Source: Alcaligenaceae bacterium
GTDB lineage: Bacteria; Pseudomonadota; Gammaproteobacteria; Burkholderiales; Burkholderiaceae_B
Length of the DNA: 64,000 nt
Direction: 5' to 3'
NCBI GenBank assembly: GCA_013416435.1
Contig: JACCEN010000012.1
Span: 106,868-170,867, forward strand
Below the pieces are notes generated by a model that worked only from the letters and a program-made list of their open reading frames with translations, did not search any database and was not told the DNA's origin. This document shows, piece after piece, positions 50,882 through 62,350 of this stretch. The position numbers and the translations under genes are program-made. Numbering within the stretch: position 1 is the stretch's first letter; each line of letters begins with the position of its first letter.

Positions 50882-50933
50882 GGGGTCAGACCCCGTACGG
50901 GGTCTGACCCCTGTAATTCCCGGGTCTGACCCC
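50882..50933. repeat. One palindromic element and a half copy
   Basis: A perfect copy at 50882-50911 starts at the base after the PAP2 stop, and a half element (GGGTCTGACCCC) lies at 50922-50933, three bases from the convergent nicX stop at 50937. It occupies the whole gap between the two genes. Confidence 0.95.
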
Positions 50934-50936
50934 AAG

Positions 50937-52004
50937 TCAAAACGCCGGCGGGTTGACGGCGCGGTCCACCCTGAGTTCGGGGTGGGCGATGTCGCCGTCG
51001 CGGACGATTTCGGTGCCGTCCAGGGTGAGGCTGCAGCCGCGCATGGGGATATCCATGTGGCAGGCGGTATCGTTGTCGCCGCCCAGCTCCACGTTGGGGC
51101 CGAGCGAGAAAAGCACGTTGCCATAGAACGAAAGCGCGTTCATGACGTGCTCCTCGTGCAGCCTGCGGGTGGCCTCGAAGTGATACCAGCGCGCGGCGTC
51201 GTTCATGCCCCAGCCTATGTGCGAAATGGCATAGGCGCGCGGGTCGTTGAAGCCGGCCACGTAGGTGCGCAGCAGGTCGGCGTCCATGCCGGAGCCTTCC
51301 ACCTTGGTGACGTAGCCGCGCTCGACGGTGAGGACGACATCGGACTGCAGATAGCGTTTGAACGCGGCCAGGATGTCGCCCTGGCGCAGCACGACGGTGC
51401 CGTTCACCTGACCGTCATTGCCCTGGGTGAATACGAAGCCCGAAGGGAAGTGGTCCCAGCGGCCGGGCTCGTCGGTATAGCCGTACTCGGACATGACCGG
51501 ATACTGGCCGAGTTCATAGGTGATGTCGGTGCCGAACCGCGACGTGATGTGCATGCGCCGGGACTGCATCAGGATCTCGCGCCCCCGCTCGACGCGCTTG
51601 GCCAGCTCGCGCGTGGGAAACATGGCACGCAGCACATTGGGCGGTTCCATGATGCGCAGTATGCGCACGCCCGCTTTCTGCATGTCCAGCTGCTCGCGCG
51701 AGAACAGCAAGCCCACCAGGTCGATGACCATGTCGCAGCGCTTGAGCATATCCAGCACCAGTTCCCTGCCGACGAACGGATGGCGTCCTTGCACGGCCGC
51801 CTTCAAGGTCTGGTCGCGCTGGACGGTCACATTGAAGGCCTGCGCGCCCAGGCGTTCCGCCGCCTTGAGCAGGGCCTGCACATAATCCGACCATTCCGTG
51901 CCGGCATTCAAGATGGCCACCTGCTCGCCTTCGCTTACCTTGCACAGCCGCAGTTCCTCAAGGAACAATTCGACCAGATCAAAATCCACTGTTGATGACG
52001 TCAT
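50937..52004 (-). CDS. nicX: 2,5-dihydroxypyridine 5,6-dioxygenase-like
   Basis: A 355-residue homologue of NicX, the non-extradiol iron dioxygenase that opens 2,5-dihydroxypyridine to N-formylmaleamate. As remembered from Pseudomonas NicX, the iron ligands lie in SHIGWG and CHxD; here they are AISHIGWGMND and TACHMDIPMRGC. EYGYTDEPGRWDHFPSGF is also conserved. ATG 52002-52004 overlaps the NicD stop (ATGA), so a longer frame from 52322 is rejected. Last gene of the pyridine operon. Confidence 0.87.
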   Translation of the reverse strand: MTSSTVDFDLVELFLEELRLCKVSEGEQVAILNAGTEWSDYVQALLKAAERLGAQAFNVTVQRDQTLKAAVQGRHPFVGRELVLDMLKRCDMVIDLVGLLFSREQLDMQKAGVRILRIMEPPNVLRAMFPTRELAKRVERGREILMQSRRMHITSRFGTDITYELGQYPVMSEYGYTDEPGRWDHFPSGFVFTQGNDGQVNGTVVLRQGDILAAFKRYLQSDVVLTVERGYVTKVEGSGMDADLLRTYVAGFNDPRAYAISHIGWGMNDAARWYHFEATRRLHEEHVMNALSFYGNVLFSLGPNVELGGDNDTACHMDIPMRGCSLTLDGTEIVRDGDIAHPELRVDRAVNPPAF

Positions 52005-52822
52005 GATGCTTGCCGCACTCCCTTCGGTAGAACCTGCCGCAACACGCGCAGGCATAAGTCTGTGTTCTCGGCCTGCAGCTGGTGCGCGGCGCCTTCGGCG
52101 CGCACCACCCGCAAATCCGGCCGGCTCTGTTGAAACCTGGTCAGCTCTTCCTGGTTGATGACGCCGCTGCCTGTTGCCACGATCAGCGTGGCCTCGCAGC
52201 GCGCGCGCGCCACATCGTCGTAGATGTCCTGCCCGTGGAAGTCGCGGTAGGCGGCTTCGATGACGCGCGGATCGCAGCTTGCCATCCATTGGGCGCGCTG
52301 CCGCAGCAAGGGTTCGGGCCATGGCGCAACGCCCGGTCGGCGCAGGTAGGCGTCGCCTTCACCGCGCCGTGCGGCCTCGACCATGGCGATGGTGCGCTCG
52401 GCGGGAATCGGATAGGGCCGTGTGCCGGGCGCGCTGGCGGGCGGGTCCAGCATGATCAGGGACCCGATGGCGGTGGATCGGGCCGCAAGACGCGCCCCGA
52501 TGCGGGCGCCCATCGAATGCCCGACGACCGCGGGGGACTGCAGGCCGGCAGCGGCCAGGAAAGCCTGCAGATCATCGGCGCAGGCATCCAGCCCATAATC
52601 CAATTGCGGCCCCTGCTCGCTGAGCCCTCGGCCGCGCACGTCCACCACCCAGACATCGTGCCCGTCGTCCACCAGGGCTTCCGCCACGTGCATCCATAAA
52701 GCCGCGGGGCTGACGATGCCCGGCACGATCACCACCGGTGCGCCCTGGCCCTTGCAGCGCAGGTAATGCTGCCGGATGCCATTGGCCCTGAAATGGCCGC
52801 CATCGATATGCTGATTAGACAT
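52001..52822 (-). CDS. nicD: N-formylmaleamate deformylase-like alpha/beta hydrolase
   Basis: A 273-residue alpha/beta hydrolase closely following NicD in pattern: ANGIRQHYLRC near the start, VPGIVSPA (oxyanion), DVRGRGLS, the elbow VVGHSMGARIG with Ser103, MLDPPASAPG with an acidic residue, and a His near GAAHQLQ. It would release formate from N-formylmaleamate. It starts four bases after the CoxLG-type stop and is coupled to nicX through ATGA. Confidence 0.87.
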   Translation of the reverse strand: MSNQHIDGGHFRANGIRQHYLRCKGQGAPVVIVPGIVSPAALWMHVAEALVDDGHDVWVVDVRGRGLSEQGPQLDYGLDACADDLQAFLAAAGLQSPAVVGHSMGARIGARLAARSTAIGSLIMLDPPASAPGTRPYPIPAERTIAMVEAARRGEGDAYLRRPGVAPWPEPLLRQRAQWMASCDPRVIEAAYRDFHGQDIYDDVARARCEATLIVATGSGVINQEELTRFQQSRPDLRVVRAEGAAHQLQAENTDLCLRVLRQVLPKGVRQAS

Positions 52823-52826
52823 CGCA

Positions 52827-55754
52827 TCAGCCTCGCATCGCGCACATGATCAAGGATGCCGCGGCCGCCCCCAGCGAAGCCGCCGCGATCAGCCAAGGCA
52901 CCATGGGCCAGGTCGGCCAGATCGACGGCTGCTGCGCCTGCGCACCGGCCGGCACAGCCATCGGCGCTGCGGCCGGCTCGCCAAGCCGCTTCTGGAAGTT
53001 CTGGAAGAACTGCGCCGTCATTTTCGCGACGACGCCCTCCACCAGGCGCGCGCCGACCTGCGCCAGTTTCCCGCCTATATCGCCGGAGGCCTCGTAGTCC
53101 AGACGTGTGCCGCCGGACTCGGCATCGCTGACGCGGATGCGGATTTCCCCCTTGGCGAACCCGGCCGGGCCGGCATTGCCCTGCACCACCAGGCGGTATG
53201 AGTTCTGCTCGACGATATCCAGCATCTGCATGACCGACTTCATGCGCACGCTGACCGGCCCGATGCTGGACTTGACCACCATCTCGTAAGTATGGGGAGC
53301 CGTCTCGGCCATGCTTTGGCATCCAGGTATGGACGCCTTCAAGACTTCCGGGTCCATCAAGGCCGCCCACACTCGGTCGCGGCCGGCGCTCAACAGGTAA
53401 TCGCCCTGCACCTTCATCTCTTCACCTTTTTCTTTGTTGCGTGCCTGCTCCAGCAGCGCCGCCAAGTTCTTCATGGATATGGGAAGCGCCGTGACCGACA
53501 CCCCTGCGCCGGCAAGCGCCGACGAGACCGCATTGGCAATGGCGGCGCCGGTGGCAATGATGCCGCCCTCGCCCGCACCCTTGACGCCCAGCGGATTGCT
53601 GGGTGAGCGGGCCAGCTCCAGCGTGTCGCCGCGCACCATGGGAAAATCGGTGCTCGTGGGCAGCAGGTAGTCGGCGAACGTGCCCGTCAGCAATTGTCCG
53701 CTGCCGTCGTAGATGAACTCGTCCAGCAACGTGCCGCCCAGCCCCTGCACCGCCGCGCCTATGGTCTGGCCATGCACGATCTCGGGATTGATGACGCGGC
53801 CAAGGTCCTCGACACAGTAGTAGTCCAGCACCTCGACCTGCGCCGTGCCGGGATCGACCGCCACCTCGGCCATCTGCACGCCGAAAGTGTAGGTAAGCTG
53901 ATCCGACATGAACTTGGCGTTGACCTCGACCTCGCCGCGCTCGGTTGCGTCGGCATGGCCGGGAATGCCTTCGGCCAGCTGCACCAGGGTCAGCAGCTTG
54001 GCCCCATCGCGGGCGTCCACCACGCAGCCGTTGCGCCACGCCAGCGAGTCTTCGTCTCGGCCCAGCCTTTGCGCGCCGCGAGAAATCAAGCGCGCGCGCA
54101 TCAGGCGGGCCGCCTCGTGCGTGGCGGCACCGCTCATGACCGCGCTGCGGCTATGGTAGGCGCCGAAGCCCGTGTCGAGCAGCGTGGTGGAACCGTGATG
54201 CACGCGCACGGCCTGCATGGGAACGTCCAGGCATTCGGCCAGTACCTGGGCCATGGACGTTTCATGTCCCTGCCCGGCGCTGGATGCGCCCAGCGCCAGG
54301 TCGAAGCAGCCGTCGTGGCGCAGCGTAAGGCGCGCGTGCTCGCCCGGCCCGCCGCCGGTGGACTCGACGAAGCAAGCCAGGCCCAGACCGATGTAGCGGC
54401 CATCTTGCAGCGTGCCCGATCGCCGGCTGCGCAGCGCCCAATCGAATGCCTTCAAGGCGTGATCCAGCACCTGCGGGTATTGTCCCGAATCGTAGACGGC
54501 GGGGCCCATGCCGGGCACCAGCGCACCCGCGTCATAAGGCATCTGATCGGGGGGAATCAGGTTGGCGGAACGGATCGCGACAGGATCCATGCCCAGCCTG
54601 GCCGCCGCGATGTCGATGAGCCGCTCGCGAAAGAAGGTCGATTCGTAGCGGCCCGGGCCGCGATACGTGCCGGCGGGCGTTTTATTGGTGCAGACCGAAC
54701 GGACCTGGAACGATGTTGCAGCAATGCGGTAGGGTCCGGGCAGGAACTGCGTGCCCTTACCCGCCATCACCCCCGTGTTCGTCCGAACATAGGCGCCGTT
54801 ATCGGCCACCATGGTGCCGCGCATGCCGAGCATCGTACCGTCGCTGTCGAAGGCCAGGGCCAGATCGCAATAGGTTTCGCGCGAATGGTTCAGCGCCATC
54901 AGGCTCTCGCGCCGGTCTTCTATCCACTTGACCGGCCGTCCGACCTGGCGCGCCAGGTACGGTATGAGGAAGTCTTCCGGATAGAAGTCGCCGCGCACGC
55001 CAAAGCTGCCTCCCACGTCGCATTCGAGCATGTCGACGCGCTCCAGGGGCAGCGCCAGCATGTCCGCCAGAATGCGCCGGTTCGCGAAAGGAACCTTGGC
55101 CGCGCCCCACACCGTCATGTGTTCCAGGGACGCGTCCCATTCGGCGACCAGCCCCCGGCATTCCAGCGGCGCGGCGCTGTGCCGGTGCACATAGAAGCGT
55201 TCCTGCACGACCAGGTGGGCCTGATCGAACGCCAGGTCGATGTCTCCGAAGCCCACCTGATAGGACGTCGAGCTATTGCTGCCTTGCTCGGGATGCAGCA
55301 GGGTCTCGTCGCGCAGCGCCACTTGGGCATCGACAACAGGGGGCAGGGACTCGATATCGGGTACGACCCGCTCGGCCGCATCCTCGGCCAGGTAGGCGTC
55401 TTCGGCCACGACCACGGCGATCGGCTCGCCCACGTAGCGCACCCGATCGACCGCCAGCGGCTTCTGCAGGAAATGCTCCATGCCCGGCAAAGGGCAGGTA
55501 CGCTGGGGAATGTCCTTGAGCAGATCGGCGATATCGGCGCCCGTCACCACCACCAGTACACCCGGCATCGATGCCGCTTCGGCCGTGTCGATGCCGCGTA
55601 TCAAACCATGGGCAACGGGCGAGCGCACGACGCGGGCGTAGACCATGCCCGGCCGACGCAAGTCGTCCACATAATGGCCACGGCCGCTGACAAAACGAGG
55701 CGCTTCGCGGCGGGGCACCGCCTGGCCGATCATCTCATTGCTATTCATCTTCAT
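52827..55754 (-). CDS. Molybdenum hydroxylase large subunit fused to a CoxG-like SRPBCC domain
   Basis: A 975-residue protein. Residues about 1-780 are a xanthine-oxidase-family large subunit: AGTYRGPGRYES (form II type, lacking the CO-dehydrogenase Cys loop) and GVKGAGEGGI with the catalytic Glu. After residue 780 there is an SRPBCC/CoxG domain (VQGDYLLSAGRDRVWAALMDPE), a Pro/Ala linker and a C-terminal hydrophobic segment (WLIAAASLGAAAASLIM) that may anchor it in the membrane. It would hydroxylate the pyridine ring with water. An internal ATG at 53415-53417 with AAGGTG upstream could also yield CoxG alone. ATG 55754 overlaps the CoxS stop. Confidence 0.88.
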   Translation of the reverse strand: MKMNSNEMIGQAVPRREAPRFVSGRGHYVDDLRRPGMVYARVVRSPVAHGLIRGIDTAEAASMPGVLVVVTGADIADLLKDIPQRTCPLPGMEHFLQKPLAVDRVRYVGEPIAVVVAEDAYLAEDAAERVVPDIESLPPVVDAQVALRDETLLHPEQGSNSSTSYQVGFGDIDLAFDQAHLVVQERFYVHRHSAAPLECRGLVAEWDASLEHMTVWGAAKVPFANRRILADMLALPLERVDMLECDVGGSFGVRGDFYPEDFLIPYLARQVGRPVKWIEDRRESLMALNHSRETYCDLALAFDSDGTMLGMRGTMVADNGAYVRTNTGVMAGKGTQFLPGPYRIAATSFQVRSVCTNKTPAGTYRGPGRYESTFFRERLIDIAAARLGMDPVAIRSANLIPPDQMPYDAGALVPGMGPAVYDSGQYPQVLDHALKAFDWALRSRRSGTLQDGRYIGLGLACFVESTGGGPGEHARLTLRHDGCFDLALGASSAGQGHETSMAQVLAECLDVPMQAVRVHHGSTTLLDTGFGAYHSRSAVMSGAATHEAARLMRARLISRGAQRLGRDEDSLAWRNGCVVDARDGAKLLTLVQLAEGIPGHADATERGEVEVNAKFMSDQLTYTFGVQMAEVAVDPGTAQVEVLDYYCVEDLGRVINPEIVHGQTIGAAVQGLGGTLLDEFIYDGSGQLLTGTFADYLLPTSTDFPMVRGDTLELARSPSNPLGVKGAGEGGIIATGAAIANAVSSALAGAGVSVTALPISMKNLAALLEQARNKEKGEEMKVQGDYLLSAGRDRVWAALMDPEVLKASIPGCQSMAETAPHTYEMVVKSSIGPVSVRMKSVMQMLDIVEQNSYRLVVQGNAGPAGFAKGEIRIRVSDAESGGTRLDYEASGDIGGKLAQVGARLVEGVVAKMTAQFFQNFQKRLGEPAAAPMAVPAGAQAQQPSIWPTWPMVPWLIAAASLGAAAASLIMCAMRG

Positions 55755-56263
55755 TTCGCGCCTGGCCTGTCGATGGCGCCAGATGATTCCAGGTTGCGGC
55801 GCCGGCCCTCTTCCATGACCGCCTCCACAATGGGCAGGTATCCCGTACATCGGCAGATGTTGCCGGACATGGCCTCCCGCACCGATTCCGCATCGACCGG
55901 TTCGCCGCGCGCCAGAAAGGCTTCGGCAGTCACGATCATTCCCGGCGTGCAGAAGCCGCATTGCATCGCATGGTGGCCGCAAAAGCTCTGTTGCAGCGGG
56001 GACAGCCCATCTTCCGGCGTCAGGCCCTCTATGGTCGTGAGCTCGCAACCCTGCGCCTGCACCGCGAACATCAGGCAGGCACGCGCGGTTTCCCCATTCA
56101 GCAATATCGTGCACGCGCCACAGACACCGTGCTCGCAACCGACGTGGGTTCCCGTCAAACCAAGATCCTGGCGCAGAAAATCCGCCAGCAGCAGGCGGGC
56201 CGGCACCTGGCGTGAGACCACCTGGCCGTTCACCACCAGGTCTATGCTGTGGGTTTCATTCAT
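55751..56263 (-). CDS. Molybdenum hydroxylase 2Fe-2S subunit (CoxS-like)
   Basis: A 170-residue small subunit with a plant-type ferredoxin domain (GCEHGVCGACTILLNG) and a second [2Fe-2S] helical domain (CGFCTPGMI and NICRCTGYLPI). All eight cluster cysteines are present. It passes electrons from the molybdenum centre to the FAD subunit. ATG 56263 has GGAGC upstream; an earlier TTG is rejected. Its start overlaps the CoxM stop and its stop overlaps the large-subunit start, both ATGA. Confidence 0.93.
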   Translation of the reverse strand: MNETHSIDLVVNGQVVSRQVPARLLLADFLRQDLGLTGTHVGCEHGVCGACTILLNGETARACLMFAVQAQGCELTTIEGLTPEDGLSPLQQSFCGHHAMQCGFCTPGMIVTAEAFLARGEPVDAESVREAMSGNICRCTGYLPIVEAVMEEGRRRNLESSGAIDRPGAK

Positions 56264-57261
56264 TGATTGCTCCAAGTGGGGGTCGAGGGGTAAGACCCCA
56301 TACGGGGTCTTACCCCGCTGCGAAAGGGGTCAGACCCGCCGGGTCTGACCCCAGCCGTTGCCTCGTTGGCGTGAAAGGAGGGGTCAGACCCCGTACGGGG
56401 TCTGACCCCAGCCCCGGCGAGTGCGCGGGTAACGCAGCTGTGCACCAGATGGCAGCGCTGGTCCGCGCTGGCATGCATGTCGGAGCGCGGGTCGACCGAT
56501 GCCGCGGCCGACAAGCCGATGAGCTCCGTGTCGATGTCGGCGACGCCGCGGCCGATCAGGGTGGACAGCGCCGCATCCAGGCGCCGCGCCCGGTCTTCCA
56601 CGGCAAACACGGCCAGTCTTCCCGCCTGCACCACGCCGTTCTCGTCGACGCTCAGCCCGACCAGGGCGCCCGCCAGGGCGAAGTCGCCTCGCCGGCGCGC
56701 GATTTCGTGAAAGCCCCAGCGCCACCCGCCCAGCGGGGCCGGAAAACGTATCCGGCTCAGTATTTCGCCGGGTTCGAGCGCCGTCTCGTAGACGCCCCTG
56801 ACAAAGTCGTCGGCCGCGACGACACGTTCGCCTTGCGGGCCGGCCAAAGACATTTCCGCATCCAGCAACAGACAGACAGCAGCCCACTCGGCGGCGGGAT
56901 CCGCATGGCACAGGCTGCCGCCGATGGTGCCCCGGTTGCGTATCTGTTCATGGGCGACATGCCGTACCGCCAGCCCGATCGCGGGCCAGCCCGATTTGAC
57001 ACGCTCATCGCGCAGGAATCGATTATGTGCGACCATGGCGCCGGCGACCAGCCTGCCATCACCGTCGAGCTCCAGCGCTGACAACTCCTTGACGCCGGCC
57101 AGGTCCACCAGCATGCCCGGCGTGGCCATGCGCAGATTCATGGCCGGCACCAGGCTCTGGCCGCCGGCAATGACCCGGGCGTCATCCGGATGCTGCCGCA
57201 GCAGTTCCAGTGCCTCTTCAATGCCGGCGGGACGCCGATAGACAAAAGCGCTTGGTTTCAC
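56260..57261 (-). CDS. Molybdenum hydroxylase FAD subunit (CoxM-like) with repeat-encoded tail
   Basis: A 333-residue protein. Residues 1-285 are a normal CoxM/FAD-binding subunit: VIAGGQSLVPAMNLR and RNRGTIGGSLCHADPA bind FAD, and PRSDMHASADQRCHL is the usual C-terminal motif. Residues about 286-333 are encoded by three palindromic elements and their spacers, giving three related ten-residue units of the form GVRPRTGSDP. The tail ends in an ATGA overlap with coxS, so the read-through keeps translational coupling. It starts two bases downstream of the Bug gene. Confidence 0.9.
   Translation of the reverse strand: MKPSAFVYRRPAGIEEALELLRQHPDDARVIAGGQSLVPAMNLRMATPGMLVDLAGVKELSALELDGDGRLVAGAMVAHNRFLRDERVKSGWPAIGLAVRHVAHEQIRNRGTIGGSLCHADPAAEWAAVCLLLDAEMSLAGPQGERVVAADDFVRGVYETALEPGEILSRIRFPAPLGGWRWGFHEIARRRGDFALAGALVGLSVDENGVVQAGRLAVFAVEDRARRLDAALSTLIGRGVADIDTELIGLSAAASVDPRSDMHASADQRCHLVHSCVTRALAGAGVRPRTGSDPSFHANEATAGVRPGGSDPFRSGVRPRMGSYPSTPTWSNQ
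56287..56409. repeat. Three palindromic elements inside the coxM 3' end
   Basis: Copies at 56287-56316 (GGGGTAAG variant with matching change), 56326-56352 (short) and 56380-56409 (standard), all read in the same frame on the minus strand. They encode the 48-residue tail of the CoxM-like protein. Confidence 0.95.
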
Positions 57262-57263
57262 GA

Positions 57264-58238
57264 TCAGTTGGCCTTGAGGCCCATCTTGTCGACGATGGGA
57301 CTGAACATTTCGACTTCACGCGCATAGCGCGCGGCGGCTTCGGCCGGCGGCATGCCTTCGGGCTTGATGCCCATGGTGCCCAGCTTCTCGGTGACTTCAG
57401 GAGAATGCAGGACCGCATGCAGCTCCTTCTGCAGGTAATCGGTGATCGCGGCCGGGGTTCCCTTGGGCGCCGCCACGGCGGAATACAGCGAGAAGTCAAA
57501 GCCCGGATAGCCGGACTCGGCAAGCGTGGGCACGTCGGGCAGGATCGGATTGCGTTCGGCGGACGTCACCGCCAGCGCCTTCGCCCGCCCCGAAGCAACC
57601 AGCGGCGCGCCGGGGCCGATGTCGGAGCTGAAAAGCTGCGTATTCCCCGCGAGCAATGCCTGCGCCGCTTCCGACGAACCCTTGTACGGAATCTGGGTCA
57701 GCTTGATGTCGGCAATCGATGCGAAGTATTCGGTGGGCACCTGCGAAGAATAGCCAAACGAGCCGTAATTGAGTTCACCCGGTTTTTCCTTGGCGTACTT
57801 GACCAGGTCCTTCACGGTATCGAACGGCTCTTTGACGCCCGCCAAGATAACCAGCGGATAGGAACCCAGGATGGTGACAGGCTCGAAATCCTTGACCGGG
57901 TCGTAGGGCAAATTGTTCTGCGTGATGGGGTTGAAGACCATGGGCCCGCTGCCGCCCACCAATAGCGTGTAGCCATCAGGCTTGGCGCGCGCAACGTACT
58001 GCGCGGCGATGATGCCGCTGGCGCCCGCCTTGTTCTCGACGACCACCGTCTGCCCGATACGCTTGGACAGCTCGGCCCCGACCAGGCGCGCAACGAGGTC
58101 CGTGCCCCCGCCCGGTGCGAACGACACAACGAAGCGCACGGGTTCGTTGGGATAGCCATCCGGGCCATTTCCCGCCAATGCGATGCCACCGACGGCGAGC
58201 AGGGTCGCCGCGACGATCGCTTTCTTCATCTTCTTCAT
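57264..58238 (-). CDS. TTT-family periplasmic receptor (Bug)
   Basis: A 324-residue TctC/Bug receptor with a signal peptide (MKKMKKAIVAATLLAVGGIALAG in pattern), VRFVVSFAPGGGTDLVAR and VVVENKAGASGIIA. AAGGG lies upstream of ATG 58238. It sits inside the pyridine operon between the FAD monooxygenase and coxM genes, so a pyridine carboxylate is its likely ligand. Confidence 0.92.
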   Translation of the reverse strand: MKKMKKAIVAATLLAVGGIALAGNGPDGYPNEPVRFVVSFAPGGGTDLVARLVGAELSKRIGQTVVVENKAGASGIIAAQYVARAKPDGYTLLVGGSGPMVFNPITQNNLPYDPVKDFEPVTILGSYPLVILAGVKEPFDTVKDLVKYAKEKPGELNYGSFGYSSQVPTEYFASIADIKLTQIPYKGSSEAAQALLAGNTQLFSSDIGPGAPLVASGRAKALAVTSAERNPILPDVPTLAESGYPGFDFSLYSAVAAPKGTPAAITDYLQKELHAVLHSPEVTEKLGTMGIKPEGMPPAEAAARYAREVEMFSPIVDKMGLKAN

Positions 58239-58297
58239 GATTTACCCTTCATTTCTAGTGGTTGATGCAAAACGTGGCCCGCACGCGGCGACGCGGG

Positions 58298-59503
58298 TCA
58301 ATCCAGCGGCACATTCACGGCGTCGTAAGACAGAATCCATTCGTAGCGATCCCGTATCTTTTCCGATGCCCATTCCGTATTGACGTAGTCGTCGGCCGTG
58401 TCGGGATCGAGCAGCGCATGATTGTGAAACCGGCCCAGATTCTCGGACGACTTCCTGACGATCTGCGTCGTGCGTTCCTTGCGCGCCTTTTCGTAGCGCC
58501 GCAGCGCTTCCGGCACGTCGTCGAACTGGCTCAGGGCGCGGGCCAGCACCATGCCGTCCTCGATGGCCATGTTGGCGCCTTGCGCCAGATAGGGCAGCGT
58601 GGCGTGGCAGGCGTCGCCCATCAGCGTGACGCGGCCCTTGGTCCATTGCGGCAGCGGTTCGCGCAGGAACAGCGCCCATTTGTACGGAATCTCTATCTGG
58701 CTGACGATGGTCTGGATATCATTGTGCCAGCCCGCATAGTCGGCCCGCAGTTCTTCTACGCTGCCTTCCTCCGTCCAGGATTCGCCCGCCCAGTCGTCAC
58801 GCTCGACGTGGCCCACGAAGTTCAGCAAACGCCCCGACCGCAGCGGATACAGAATGACGTGCCCATTGGGACCGATCCAATTGACGCCCACAGGCCGACG
58901 CAGATGTTCCGGCAAGCGTTCAATGTCGATGATGCCGCGCCAGCAGCACCCGCCCGTGAACTTGGGTTGATCGGGGCCGAACATGGCCTTGCGCGTGGCC
59001 GAATGCAGGCCGTCCGCGCCCACCAGCACGTCGCCCCGGATGCGTCTGCCGTCCTGCAAGATCAAGGTCACGCCATCCGCATCCTGCTCGAAACCGGCCA
59101 CCCGGCTGTTGACCATGCACGCATCGGGCTTGATTTCACGCACGGCCTCGAGCAGCATGGAATGCAGGTCGGCGCGGTGCATCATCAAATAAGGAACGCC
59201 ATAGCGGTCCATCGACTCTTTGCCCAGGTTGAACAGCGGCCAGGTCTTGCCCGTATTCCAGACGCGTACTTCTTTGGCCTGGGCATCCACACCCAGGCGC
59301 TTGGCCGGCTCTTCCAGCCCCAGCTCATACAGTACCCGCACCCCGTTGGGCCCCAGCTGGACCCCGGCGCCGATCTCTTTCAGTTCCTGAGCCTGCTCGA
59401 AGACGGACACATCGAAACCACGCCGCAGCAAGGCCAGCGCCGCCGTCAAGCCGCCGATGCCGCCACCGGCAATCAATACATGCTTTTTTTGCTGCATGGT
59501 CAT
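58298..59503 (-). CDS. FAD-dependent aromatic monooxygenase (salicylate/6-hydroxynicotinate hydroxylase-like)
   Basis: A 401-residue class A flavoprotein: LIAGGGIGGLTAAL (FAD), VGADGLHSATR (DG motif) and MGDACHATLPYLAQGANMAIED. By position in the operon it should make 2,5-dihydroxypyridine from a hydroxylated pyridine carboxylate, as NicC does. The segment corresponding to NicC GAGIHIGPN, with a catalytic His, is GAGVQLGPN here (Gln49), as in 3-hydroxybenzoate 6-hydroxylase-type enzymes, so orthology to NicC is doubtful. ATG 59503 overlaps the NicF-like stop (ATGA). Confidence 0.85.
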   Translation of the reverse strand: MTMQQKKHVLIAGGGIGGLTAALALLRRGFDVSVFEQAQELKEIGAGVQLGPNGVRVLYELGLEEPAKRLGVDAQAKEVRVWNTGKTWPLFNLGKESMDRYGVPYLMMHRADLHSMLLEAVREIKPDACMVNSRVAGFEQDADGVTLILQDGRRIRGDVLVGADGLHSATRKAMFGPDQPKFTGGCCWRGIIDIERLPEHLRRPVGVNWIGPNGHVILYPLRSGRLLNFVGHVERDDWAGESWTEEGSVEELRADYAGWHNDIQTIVSQIEIPYKWALFLREPLPQWTKGRVTLMGDACHATLPYLAQGANMAIEDGMVLARALSQFDDVPEALRRYEKARKERTTQIVRKSSENLGRFHNHALLDPDTADDYVNTEWASEKIRDRYEWILSYDAVNVPLD

Positions 59504-60216
59504 GCTCCCCGCCCCTGCGCGGCCGGTATCAAGGCCAGCATTTCGTCGGTGGACATCACGTCGGCATACTTGCTGTTCATGTCGAACAGATTGACCGCGT
59601 GAGAGGTTTGCGACCGGTCGAAAACGGCGTCATGCGGAACGATGACGTGATAGCCGTAAGACGAGGCATCGACCGCGGATGCGCGCACACAGCCGCTGGT
59701 GGTGGTGCCTGTGACCACAACGCAGTTGGCGTTCTGGGTGGTCAGGTAGCTGACCAGCGGCGTGCCGAAGAAGGCGCTGGCATGATGCTTGGGCAGCAGG
59801 ATATCGCCCGGTTGCGGCGCGCACTCCTTGACCATTTCATAGCCTTGCCGCGGTATGGACATGATGCCCGGCGCCTTGTCGGCAAAGCGCTGGCCGTCGT
59901 GGTTTTCCTTGAAAGCCACGTGCGGAAAAATGACCGGCAGCTTGTGCTGCCGGAAGGCCTGGATGAGCCGCGCGATATGCGGCACGGCGCGCCAGCCATA
60001 TTCGCCGCAGCTGGTCGGATACTCGCGCTTTATCGACTCCATGATGGGCAGTCGTTCGTGCCCGACCGAGCGGTATTGCACATCGATCACCAGCAAGGCC
60101 GGCCTGATTTCCCCCTGGAACCGCTTGCCGAACCCCGCCGCCTGATAAATCGACAGCTCTTCTTCCGTGACCACATCCTGCCATGGCAGTGTTCGACCTT
60201 CATTAAACGTATCCAT
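59500..60216 (-). CDS. nicF: Isochorismatase-family maleamate amidohydrolase-like
   Basis: A 238-residue cysteine hydrolase. The triad is visible as Asp45 (LLVIDVQ), Lys143 (LLPKHHASAF) and Cys176 (TGTTTSGCVRAS). In the nicotinate pathway NicF hydrolyses maleamate to maleate and ammonia; the adjacent nicX and nicD homologues support that role. N-carbamoylsarcosine amidase is the closest other possibility. It is the first gene of the minus-strand pyridine operon. Confidence 0.82.
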   Translation of the reverse strand: MDTFNEGRTLPWQDVVTEEELSIYQAAGFGKRFQGEIRPALLVIDVQYRSVGHERLPIMESIKREYPTSCGEYGWRAVPHIARLIQAFRQHKLPVIFPHVAFKENHDGQRFADKAPGIMSIPRQGYEMVKECAPQPGDILLPKHHASAFFGTPLVSYLTTQNANCVVVTGTTTSGCVRASAVDASSYGYHVIVPHDAVFDRSQTSHAVNLFDMNSKYADVMSTDEMLALIPAAQGRGA

Positions 60217-60285
60217 TTCACCCTCTAGTTACCCGTGGCGGCGCGCCACCACAATCGGCCTGCACGGCCTTGCAAAACATTTTGT

Positions 60286-60429
60286 TCACACATGAGAACA
60301 ATCATTCATACACAGGAATATTTTAAGAGCGCAGAAATCGACGCGTCAAGCTGTTTTTCGGCTTGACCCTGTTCCGTACAGCGGATTACTATATTCTCAC
60401 ATGAGAACAGTCATTCATGTGTATGAATA
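60286..60429. promoter_or_regulatory. Two 36-bp direct repeats with internal symmetry (putative IclR operators)
   Basis: The 317-base gap between nicF (60216) and the Bug gene (60534) holds two copies, 60286-60321 and 60394-60429, about 108 bp apart. Both contain CACATGAGAACA and TCATTCAT. Copy 2 has two inverted repeats: TTCTC, four bases, GAGAA and ATTCAT, four bases, ATGAAT. Copy 1 is a weaker match of the same arrangement. The place suggests an operator pair controlling both divergent operons. The rest of the gap holds two palindromic elements and nothing else visible. Confidence 0.6.
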
Positions 60430-60434
60430 AATAA

Positions 60435-60514
60435 GGGGTCAGACCCCGTACGGGGTCTGACCCCATTGCTGAATGATTAACGAAGGGGTCCGACCCTGAA
60501 TGGGGTCGGACCCC
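60435..60514. repeat. Two palindromic elements upstream of the Bug gene
   Basis: Copies at 60435-60464 (standard) and 60485-60514 (variant: arm GGGGTCCGACCC, other arm changed to match). They lie between the putative operator and the start of the Bug gene at 60534, so they would be in its 5' untranslated region. Confidence 0.95.
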
Positions 60515-60533
60515 TCTGCGATAGGAGATCTTG

Positions 60534-61547
60534 ATGTGGAAGAAAACAGGGAAGCGGCGCGCGCTGGTCAAGGCCTTGCCCGCGCTGGCCATCGGCATGC
60601 TGTGCGGAATGACGGCAACCCATGCCGCGAATCAGCCCGAAGGAAGCCATAGCGCCTATCCGTCGAAGACGGTGCGCATCGTCGTGCCCTTCCCCGTCGG
60701 CGGCAGCATGGACGGCCTGGCGCGCCAGGTGGCGCAAGAGCTGGGCGAACGCTGGGGGCATGCCGTAGTGGTCGACAATCGCGACGGCGCAAGCGGCATG
60801 ATCGGCCTCTCCGCGGTAGCCAAGTCGGCGCCCGACGGCTACACACTGGGTGTCGTCGCAAACAGCTTCGTCGCCAATCCACTGCTGCGCAATGACCTGC
60901 CTTACGACGCGTTCAACAGTTTCGAGCCCGTTTCACTGCTTGCGTCGGTGCCGTTCGTCCTGTCCGCCAAGGCCTCGCTGCCCGCTTCGCTGCCTGAATT
61001 CATCGCCCACGCCAAGGCGCAACCGGATGCGCTCGACTATTCTTCCGGCGGCAACGGCACCATGTCGCACCTGGGGGCCGAAATGCTGAAGCAGGCCATC
61101 GGCATCGATGCTACCCACATCCCATACCGCGGCCAGGCTCCGGCACTGACCGACGTGGTCTCGGGCCATGTGTCCTTCACCATGGGCAACCTGCCCGAAG
61201 TGGTGCCCCAGGCGCGCGTCGGCAAACTGCAGGCGCTGGCCATCATGTCCAATGCACGTTCGCCGCTCCTGCCCGATACGCCAACGCTGGCCGAAAGCGG
61301 CTTCACGCCTTTGAGCATCGGTTCCTGGTATGGCCTGGTGGCGCCGCAGGGCACGCCGCAGCCCGTGCTGGACCAGATTCAGAAGGCCATTTCCGACACC
61401 ATGGCGCAACCCGCCTTCCGTGGCAAGCTCGAGCAACAAGGCTTCGAAGTGATCGGCAGCACACCCGCGCAATTCGAGGCGTTCATGCATCACGAATCTG
61501 CTATATATGAGAAAGTGATCGACGCCGCCGGCATCAAGACCCAATAA
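60534..61547 (+). CDS. TTT-family periplasmic receptor (Bug)
   Basis: A 337-residue TctC/Bug receptor: basic N-terminus, signal peptide to TATHAANQPEG, then VRIVVPFPVGGSMDGLAR and VVVDNRDGASGMIG. ATG 60534 follows AGGAGATCTTG; the TTG just before it is rejected. It begins an operon with the IclR regulator and XdhC gene and is divergent from the pyridine operon, which contains its own Bug receptor, so the system may have two. Confidence 0.92.
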   Translation: MWKKTGKRRALVKALPALAIGMLCGMTATHAANQPEGSHSAYPSKTVRIVVPFPVGGSMDGLARQVAQELGERWGHAVVVDNRDGASGMIGLSAVAKSAPDGYTLGVVANSFVANPLLRNDLPYDAFNSFEPVSLLASVPFVLSAKASLPASLPEFIAHAKAQPDALDYSSGGNGTMSHLGAEMLKQAIGIDATHIPYRGQAPALTDVVSGHVSFTMGNLPEVVPQARVGKLQALAIMSNARSPLLPDTPTLAESGFTPLSIGSWYGLVAPQGTPQPVLDQIQKAISDTMAQPAFRGKLEQQGFEVIGSTPAQFEAFMHHESAIYEKVIDAAGIKTQ

Positions 61548-61588
61548 TCCCACGTGGGCGGCGCGTCGAATGAATGTTCAGGAGTGAA

Positions 61589-62350
61589 ATGAAACCACCT
61601 CAAGCCATGACGGAACGCGCGGCGGGCGTCAAAAGCGCAGTACGCGTGTTGGATGTGCTGGAGTTCTTTGCACGGACCATGGAACCGGCAACCCTGGCGC
61701 GCCTGTGTACCGAGCTGGACATGCCCAAGTCCAGCGGCCATGCGCTGATGGAAACGCTAAGGCAGCAAGGCTATCTTTATTGGCTGGGCAAGCATCACGG
61801 CTACTACCCCACGCGGCGCTGGCGCGATCAGGGCGAGGCCATTACGCGCCATGACCCCATTTTGTCGATGGCCTCCGAATCGCTGCATCACATCAGCAGC
61901 GAAACCGGCGAAACCGCCATCCTGGCCAAGCGCGAAGAAAACCACGTACTCTACCTGGAGGTCGTGGAACCCGACCGCACTCTGCGCTTCTCGGCGTATG
62001 CGGGCCAGATCAAGCCCATGCACAGCGCCGCCTCCGGCCGGGCGCTGCTTGCCCTCATCGACAGCGACGAGCGGAACAAAGTGCTGCGGCAACTGAAGCT
62101 GGTGGCCTACTCGGACCGCACCGTCACCGACATGAACCGCCTGAAGCAGGTCATCGAGGAAGGCGAAGCCGCCGGCTATCACGTCGCCATCGGCGAATAC
62201 CAATCGGACACGACGGCCATCGCCGTGGGGTTCCGGTTCGGCACCGAATGCTATGCCCTGCTGGTGGGCGGCCCCACCCAACGGCTGGAAGGCCACATCG
62301 ACGAGATCGGCCGCATGCTGATCGCGCGCACAGCGCAGCTGGCTGGTTAG
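61589..62350 (+). CDS. IclR-family transcriptional regulator
   Basis: A 253-residue IclR protein: winged helix (about 12-75; VKSAVRVLDVLEFF then LARLCTELDMPKSSGHALMETLR) and a C-terminal effector domain (about 90-245). AGGAG before ATG 61589 favours it over ATG 61574. IclR proteins control aromatic catabolism (PcaR, PobR), and this one is the probable regulator of the flanking pyridine operon through the direct repeats at 60286-60429. It differs from the MarR-type NicR/BpsR of known nicotinate clusters. Confidence 0.9.
   Translation: MKPPQAMTERAAGVKSAVRVLDVLEFFARTMEPATLARLCTELDMPKSSGHALMETLRQQGYLYWLGKHHGYYPTRRWRDQGEAITRHDPILSMASESLHHISSETGETAILAKREENHVLYLEVVEPDRTLRFSAYAGQIKPMHSAASGRALLALIDSDERNKVLRQLKLVAYSDRTVTDMNRLKQVIEEGEAAGYHVAIGEYQSDTTAIAVGFRFGTECYALLVGGPTQRLEGHIDEIGRMLIARTAQLAG

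What the first reader, a model, noticed from the sequence alone, without database searches (positions are those of the whole stretch)
56260..56409. Three elements read in frame as a 48-residue tail of the CoxM-like subunit
All three copies and their spacers keep one open frame, giving three related units (GVRPRTGSDP and variants) and ending exactly in the ATGA overlap with coxS. Chance retention of the frame and of the overlap over about 140 bases is unlikely unless it is selected or the elements expanded in register.
Basis: partly seen in the sequence, partly recalled or inferred. Interest (0 to 1): 0.75.

Follow-up and report, generated by a model that had tools for sequence, protein, structure and literature searches.

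The report
Mobile palindromes lengthen an enzyme tail
Three copies of a short selfish DNA palindrome, present about a thousand times in this bacterium's genome, sit in frame at the very end of an enzyme-subunit gene and add about 41 residues to the protein, most likely as a tolerated passenger and not as a new functional part.

Summary
The CoxM-like gene (56260-57261, minus) runs through three palindromic elements (56380-56409, 56326-56352, 56287-56316) and stops in the ATGA overlap with coxS. The tail is 49 residues, 41 of them from elements and spacers.

The elements belong to a 30-bp family (GGGGTCAGACCCC-N4-GGGGTCTGACCCC). This genome holds about 970 copies and one REP-type HUH/Y1 transposase gene flanked by the same palindromes.

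A congener, Parapusillimonas granuli, has exactly one such element in its genome. It lies at this coxM site, in frame, with the overlap kept. Two more distant relatives have none, so the coxM-coxS overlap predates the elements.

Keeping the frame is less surprising than claimed. Of real arrays from this genome dropped in silico at the site, 108/126 singles and 12/62 triples stay open to the native stop. Yet only 3 of 154 sampled clusters lie inside genes, all in the same open frame, so disruptive insertions are purged and in-frame ones survive. "Expansion in register" is not supported: the spacers are unrelated.

The tail has no counterpart in 33 homologues and is predicted disordered. Best reading: a tolerated in-frame insertion of a TIR/REP-type element. 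In-frame protein-coding palindromes are a known kind (Rickettsia, Thauera).

The parts
56260..57261 (-). CoxM-like FAD-binding medium subunit of a molybdenum hydroxylase, 333 aa; conserved body 1-284, tail 285-333
   Evidence: Pfam FAD_binding_5 and CO_deh_flav_C; best solved relative quinoline 2-oxidoreductase medium subunit 1t3q_C, matched over residues 1-282; alignment of 35 relatives
56380..56409 (-). Element 1 in coding order, 30 bp, GGGGTCAGACCCCGTACGGGGTCTGACCCC, read GVRPRTGSDP
   Evidence: the commonest form in the genome sample
56353..56379 (-). 27-bp spacer, read SFHANEATA; unique in the genome at up to 3 mismatches
56326..56352 (-). Element 2, 27 bp, GGGGTCAGACCCGGCGGGTCTGACCCC, read GVRPGGSDP; differs by its central base from the single element of P. 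granuli at this site
56317..56325 (-). 9-bp spacer, read FRS
56287..56316 (-). Element 3, 30 bp, with paired changes in both arms (TCAG to TAAG, CTGA to CTTA), read GVRPRMGSYP
56260..56286 (-). Resumed 3' end of coxM (STPTWSNQ, stop) with the coxS ribosome-binding site GGAG (56270-56273) and the ATGA overlap (56260-56263)
   Evidence: the same end is present in P. granuli
55751..56263 (-). CoxS-like [2Fe-2S] small subunit, 170 aa
   Evidence: Fer2 and Fer2_2
52827..55754 (-). CoxL-like molybdopterin subunit with a C-terminal CoxG domain, 975 aa
   Evidence: MoCoBD_1, MoCoBD_2, Ald_Xan_dh_C, COXG

Best explanation
A small array of non-autonomous palindromic mobile elements (TIR/REP type, probably moved in trans by the genome's single HUH/Y1 tyrosine transposase) lies in the last codons of a CoxM-like gene, upstream of a start-stop overlap with coxS that already existed. 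Because the elements are 30 or 27 bp long and open in two of three frames, the gene stays open and translation still ends at the overlap. Insertions that shift or close the frame would uncouple coxS and are purged. The 41 added residues form an unstructured C-terminal extension that is tolerated, not needed. Shown: element family, copy number, flanking of the transposase gene, 0/1/3-element states in relatives, frame and overlap kept, rarity inside genes. Inferred: movement by this transposase, translational coupling, dispensability of the tail.
For: Half-site GGGTCWGACCC occurs 2297 times in 4.40 Mb; 972 paired sites. One Y1_Tnp gene in the genome, with HVH (64-66) and YxxxN (Y124, N128), flanked by the palindromes on both sides. 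Homologues of that transposase in other genera are flanked by inverted repeats that begin with the same GGGGTCAGAC. Zero elements at this site in Verticiella and Candidimonas, one in P. granuli, three here, with an overlap in all four. Real arrays of the genome placed at the site in silico keep the frame in 108/126 (one element), 29/112 (two) and 12/62 (three) cases. Only 3 of 154 clusters lie inside genes in an 89%-coding sample. The conserved core ends at A284; no relative or solved structure has a matching tail. AlphaFold gives pLDDT of about 32-44 and no secondary structure for residues 292-333.
Against: Transposition by this gene is inferred from association alone. The transposase lacks roughly the last 30 residues of its homologues and could be inactive. 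No empty site shows a clean insertion, and the spacer sequences have no known source. Three elements all in one frame (12/62 under the null) leaves some room for selection on the tail itself.
Confidence: 0.82

Rival explanations
1. The hairpins act in the mRNA: three stable stem-loops just before the coxS start tune processing, stability or the CoxM:CoxS ratio, and the peptide is a by-product.
For: The coding-strand RNA folds far better than shuffles (-104.7 kcal/mol, z = -7.2). 54 of 94 elements with a changed left arm carry the exact compensating change in the right arm, so the hairpin is kept somehow. Intercistronic REPs are known to affect mRNA (general knowledge).
Against: These elements are inside translated sequence, where ribosomes would unfold them. 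Predicted accessibility of the coxS start codon is similar with one and with three elements (0.71 and 0.76). Compensated arms are also expected if elements are copied as hairpins. Element-free relatives have the same operon.
Confidence: 0.1
2. The tail is a selected new part of the protein (binding or docking extension).
For: Open frame and same phase for all three elements; P. granuli keeps its one intact element exactly here.
Against: Length differs between congeners; absent from 33 other relatives; predicted disordered; the same peptide is read at the ends of many unrelated genes in this genome. The P. granuli copy lies in a segment with raised synonymous identity, so recent shared ancestry or exchange explains its survival.
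Confidence: 0.05
3. A different history with the same mechanism: the array was once longer in both species and P. granuli lost two elements by recombination between identical arms; the spacers are remnants of the native tail.
For: Recombination between like arms would remove exactly 57 and 39 bp and leave the outer flanks seen in P. granuli. The longer spacer has no other source in the genome. This differs from the main reading in history, not in mechanism.
Against: Outgroup tails are only about 10 residues long, so a long native tail is not supported.
Confidence: 0.35

Closest known systems
TIRYT-associated palindromic TIR repeats (Di Nocera et al. 2013, PMC3733652)
   Same: HUH/Y1 transposase gene flanked by inverted repeats with the motif GGGGWSAS (here GGGGTCAG); repeats scattered singly, in dimers and in clusters, some self-complementary
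   Different: Copy number here (about 970) is very high; this sequence family was not found named in the papers read; class signatures of the transposase were not tested
GTAG/CGTC REPs, including intragenic ones in Thauera and Rickettsia conorii (PMC3733652)
   Same: Short palindromes, high copy, mostly extragenic and near gene 3' ends, sometimes read in frame; clusters that encode 43-82 residues are described
   Different: No GTAG or CGTC tag next to these elements
Rickettsia palindromic elements (RPE), as reviewed in PMC10969869
   Same: Palindromic mobile DNA that stays in frame inside protein genes
   Different: RPEs are about 150 bp and each encodes a longer conserved peptide; these are 27-30 bp and mostly outside genes
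Quinoline 2-oxidoreductase / CO dehydrogenase medium subunit
   Same: Whole conserved body, residues 1-282
   Different: Known chains end about where the conserved body ends; none has the tail

Membership tests
TIRYT/TIR-type repeat with tyrosine transposase | Y1 transposase with HUH motif and catalytic tyrosine | tested here: met
   Pfam Y1_Tnp 48.1 bits against cut-off 23; HVH at 64-66, Y124 in YIELN
TIRYT/TIR-type repeat with tyrosine transposase | Inverted repeats with GGGGWSAS flank the gene and recur in the genome | tested here: met
   GGGGTCAG palindromes at L001 1235-1264 and 1960-1989; genome-wide copies
TIRYT/TIR-type repeat with tyrosine transposase | TIRYT-specific amino-acid signatures and length class | not tested
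   The published alignment was not available here
Canonical REP with RAYT | GTAG or CGTC tetranucleotide next to the palindrome | tested here: not met
   No flanking consensus in 600 flanks
Canonical REP with RAYT | Transposase is an NCBIfam REP-associated tyrosine transposase (NF047646) | tested here: not met
   64.1 bits, cut-off 80
Canonical REP with RAYT | 20-40 bp palindrome in more than 100 copies, mostly extragenic | tested here: met
   27-30 bp, about 970 copies, 3 of 154 clusters inside genes
Protein-coding palindrome (RPE-like) | Element lies inside a gene and keeps its frame | tested here: met
   coxM and two further genes in the sample
Protein-coding palindrome (RPE-like) | About 150 bp element with one conserved ORF | tested here: not met
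   30-bp elements read in different frames at gene ends
CoxM/FAD subunit of molybdenum hydroxylases | FAD_binding_5 and CO_deh_flav_C domains, AGGQS and TxGGS motifs | tested here: met
CoxM/FAD subunit of molybdenum hydroxylases | Substrate (CO or another) | not testable with these tools
   No equivalog model reaches its cut-off

The most novel reading that the evidence does not exclude
Translated palindromes before an overlapping start codon act as a ribosome-dependent regulator: hairpins that ribosomes must melt set how many reach coxS, so that array length tunes subunit ratio, with the peptide tail as its trace.
Probability: 0.06. Interest if true: 0.6.

Novelty: new member of a known kind. 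Interest (0 to 1): 0.36.

Why it matters
It is a clean natural series (0, 1 and 3 elements at one site) of how selfish palindromes extend a conserved enzyme subunit without breaking a coupled operon. It also shows that about 6% of gene ends in the sampled part of this genome are written by such an element, which makes tolerance of random C-terminal tails testable. It warns against reading a conserved frame as evidence of function.

Tried and rejected
In-register tandem expansion: rejected, spacers unrelated and the longer one unique, spacer lengths genome-wide not biased to multiples of three. Sequencing or frameshift error: rejected by the independent P. granuli assembly. Canonical GTAG REP: tag absent. 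Strong selection on the P. granuli element, because it is the only intact one there: rejected as the first choice, since the segment (window about 50.9-62.3 kb) has fourfold-site identity of 79-91% against mostly 51-79% (one gene 84%) in the rest of the compared synteny, and a decayed element is also found in it. Literature search for the 13-mer found no paper. Degenerate elements in P. granuli elsewhere could not be told from chance.

Full report
Observation. The minus-strand ORF 56260-57261 encodes a CoxM-like subunit. After ...HLVHSCVTRALAGA it reads GVRPRTGSDP-SFHANEATA-GVRPGGSDP-FRS-GVRPRMGSYP-STPTWSNQ and stops in the ATGA overlap with coxS. The three GVRP units are exact inverted repeats of 30, 27 and 30 bp. 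The tail has 49 residues, not 48.

What the elements are. The half-site occurs 48 times in the window against 0.1 expected and 2297 times in the genome; 972 paired sites exist. In an 851-kb sample 242 of 300 elements are 30 bp and 16 are 27 bp; they lie singly or in arrays of two to five. The genome has one Y1 transposase gene, with palindromes at its stop codon and upstream of its start. It has an HVH motif and a YxxxN motif. It scores below the NCBIfam cut-off for REP-associated tyrosine transposase, and the elements lack the GTAG tag. They do fit the GGGGWSAS motif that Di Nocera et al. describe for inverted repeats of TIRYT genes (PMC3733652). Homologous transposases in other genera of the family (48-49% identical) are flanked by inverted repeats starting GGGGTCAGACACG. 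I therefore place the elements with TIR-type repeats and treat mobilisation by this gene as likely but unproven.

Distribution. Among 268 genomes of the family only this one (703 strict copies) and one other (3) carry the strict 30-bp form. In a sample of the order one more genome has 78. P. granuli has no Y1 transposase gene and exactly one paired element, inside coxM.

The site in relatives. P. granuli (96% identical over the 284-residue body) reads ...ALAGA-GVRPAGSDP-STPTWSNQ with the ATGA overlap. Verticiella (80%) and Candidimonas (73%) read ...RALAAAMERLPGVRNE and ...RALVEAAGKPAGVRND with an 8-base overlap and no element. So the overlap is old and the elements are later. P. granuli's lone element is probably explained by shared recent ancestry or exchange of the cox segment: fourfold-site identity is 79-91% there and mostly 51-79% (one gene 84%) in the rest of the compared synteny, and an intergenic element in the same segment is decayed in P. 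granuli.

Is the open frame surprising? I placed real arrays of this genome at the coxM site in silico. The gene stayed open to the native stop in 108 of 126 single-element, 29 of 112 two-element and 12 of 62 three-element placements. So one element is nearly free, and three at about 19% is unremarkable for a case picked because it is open. Selection is still visible at genome level: 89% of the sample is coding, but only 3 of 154 clusters lie inside genes, all three read as GVRPxxGSDP. The simplest account is that disruptive insertions are removed and in-frame ones survive. Spacer lengths have no bias to multiples of three (52/41/49) and the 27-bp spacer is unique in the genome, which argues against expansion in register.

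Does the tail do anything? The alignment of 35 relatives is conserved up to A284 and ragged after it. Solved relatives match only to about residue 294 at most. AlphaFold predicts the body well and gives pLDDT of about 32-44 with no secondary structure for 292-333. As RNA the region folds very stably (z = -7.2), but predicted accessibility of the coxS start codon is about the same with one and three elements. I favour a tolerated passenger; an RNA effect is the main functional rival.

History. Whether this lineage gained two elements or P. granuli lost two by recombination between identical arms cannot be decided with two congeners; the outer flanks fit both.

Known or new. In-frame palindromes inside bacterial genes are known: Rickettsia palindromic elements (PMC10969869) and intragenic REPs, including clusters that encode 43-82 residues in Thauera and R. 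conorii (PMC3733652). This is a new case of that kind in a new host gene with a different element. The genome sample adds that 47 of 784 gene ends lie within such elements, 28 of them in the phase where the element supplies its own TGA.

Noticed in passing
G000 sample (C1 1-400000, C4, C7 1-200000, parts of C2, C3, C5, C6): 47 of 784 called genes end inside the palindromic elements; 28 of 47 are in the one phase whose own TGA ends the gene (tails such as GQTPYGV), more than an even split would give.
   Followed up: partly
L001 1264-1878: The single Y1 transposase gene ends at an element (TAG overlaps its first base) and lacks about 30 C-terminal residues present in homologues of 237-243 aa; it may be a truncated or self-limited enzyme.
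   Followed up: partly
window 50900-62350: The segment around the cox operon has much higher synonymous identity to P. granuli than its surroundings, which suggests exchange between lineages.
   Followed up: partly
G000:C7:135619-135648 and G000:C7:42288-42338: Two further in-frame insertions inside genes: one in a 260-aa ORF, one in a 1258-aa ORF with a DUF6531 domain (Rhs-like).
   Followed up: partly
window 52827-55754: The CoxL-like subunit carries a CoxG domain fused at its C-terminus.
   Followed up: no
window 57264-60174: Next to the operon lie a TctC-type receptor, an FAD monooxygenase and an isochorismatase-type hydrolase, which fits breakdown of an N-heteroaromatic compound better than CO oxidation.
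   Followed up: no
G549 (another family of the order) and G075: The same 30-bp palindrome occurs 78 times in one genome of about 1.5 Mb of another family and 3 times in a genome of another genus, a patchy spread that suggests horizontal movement.
   Followed up: no
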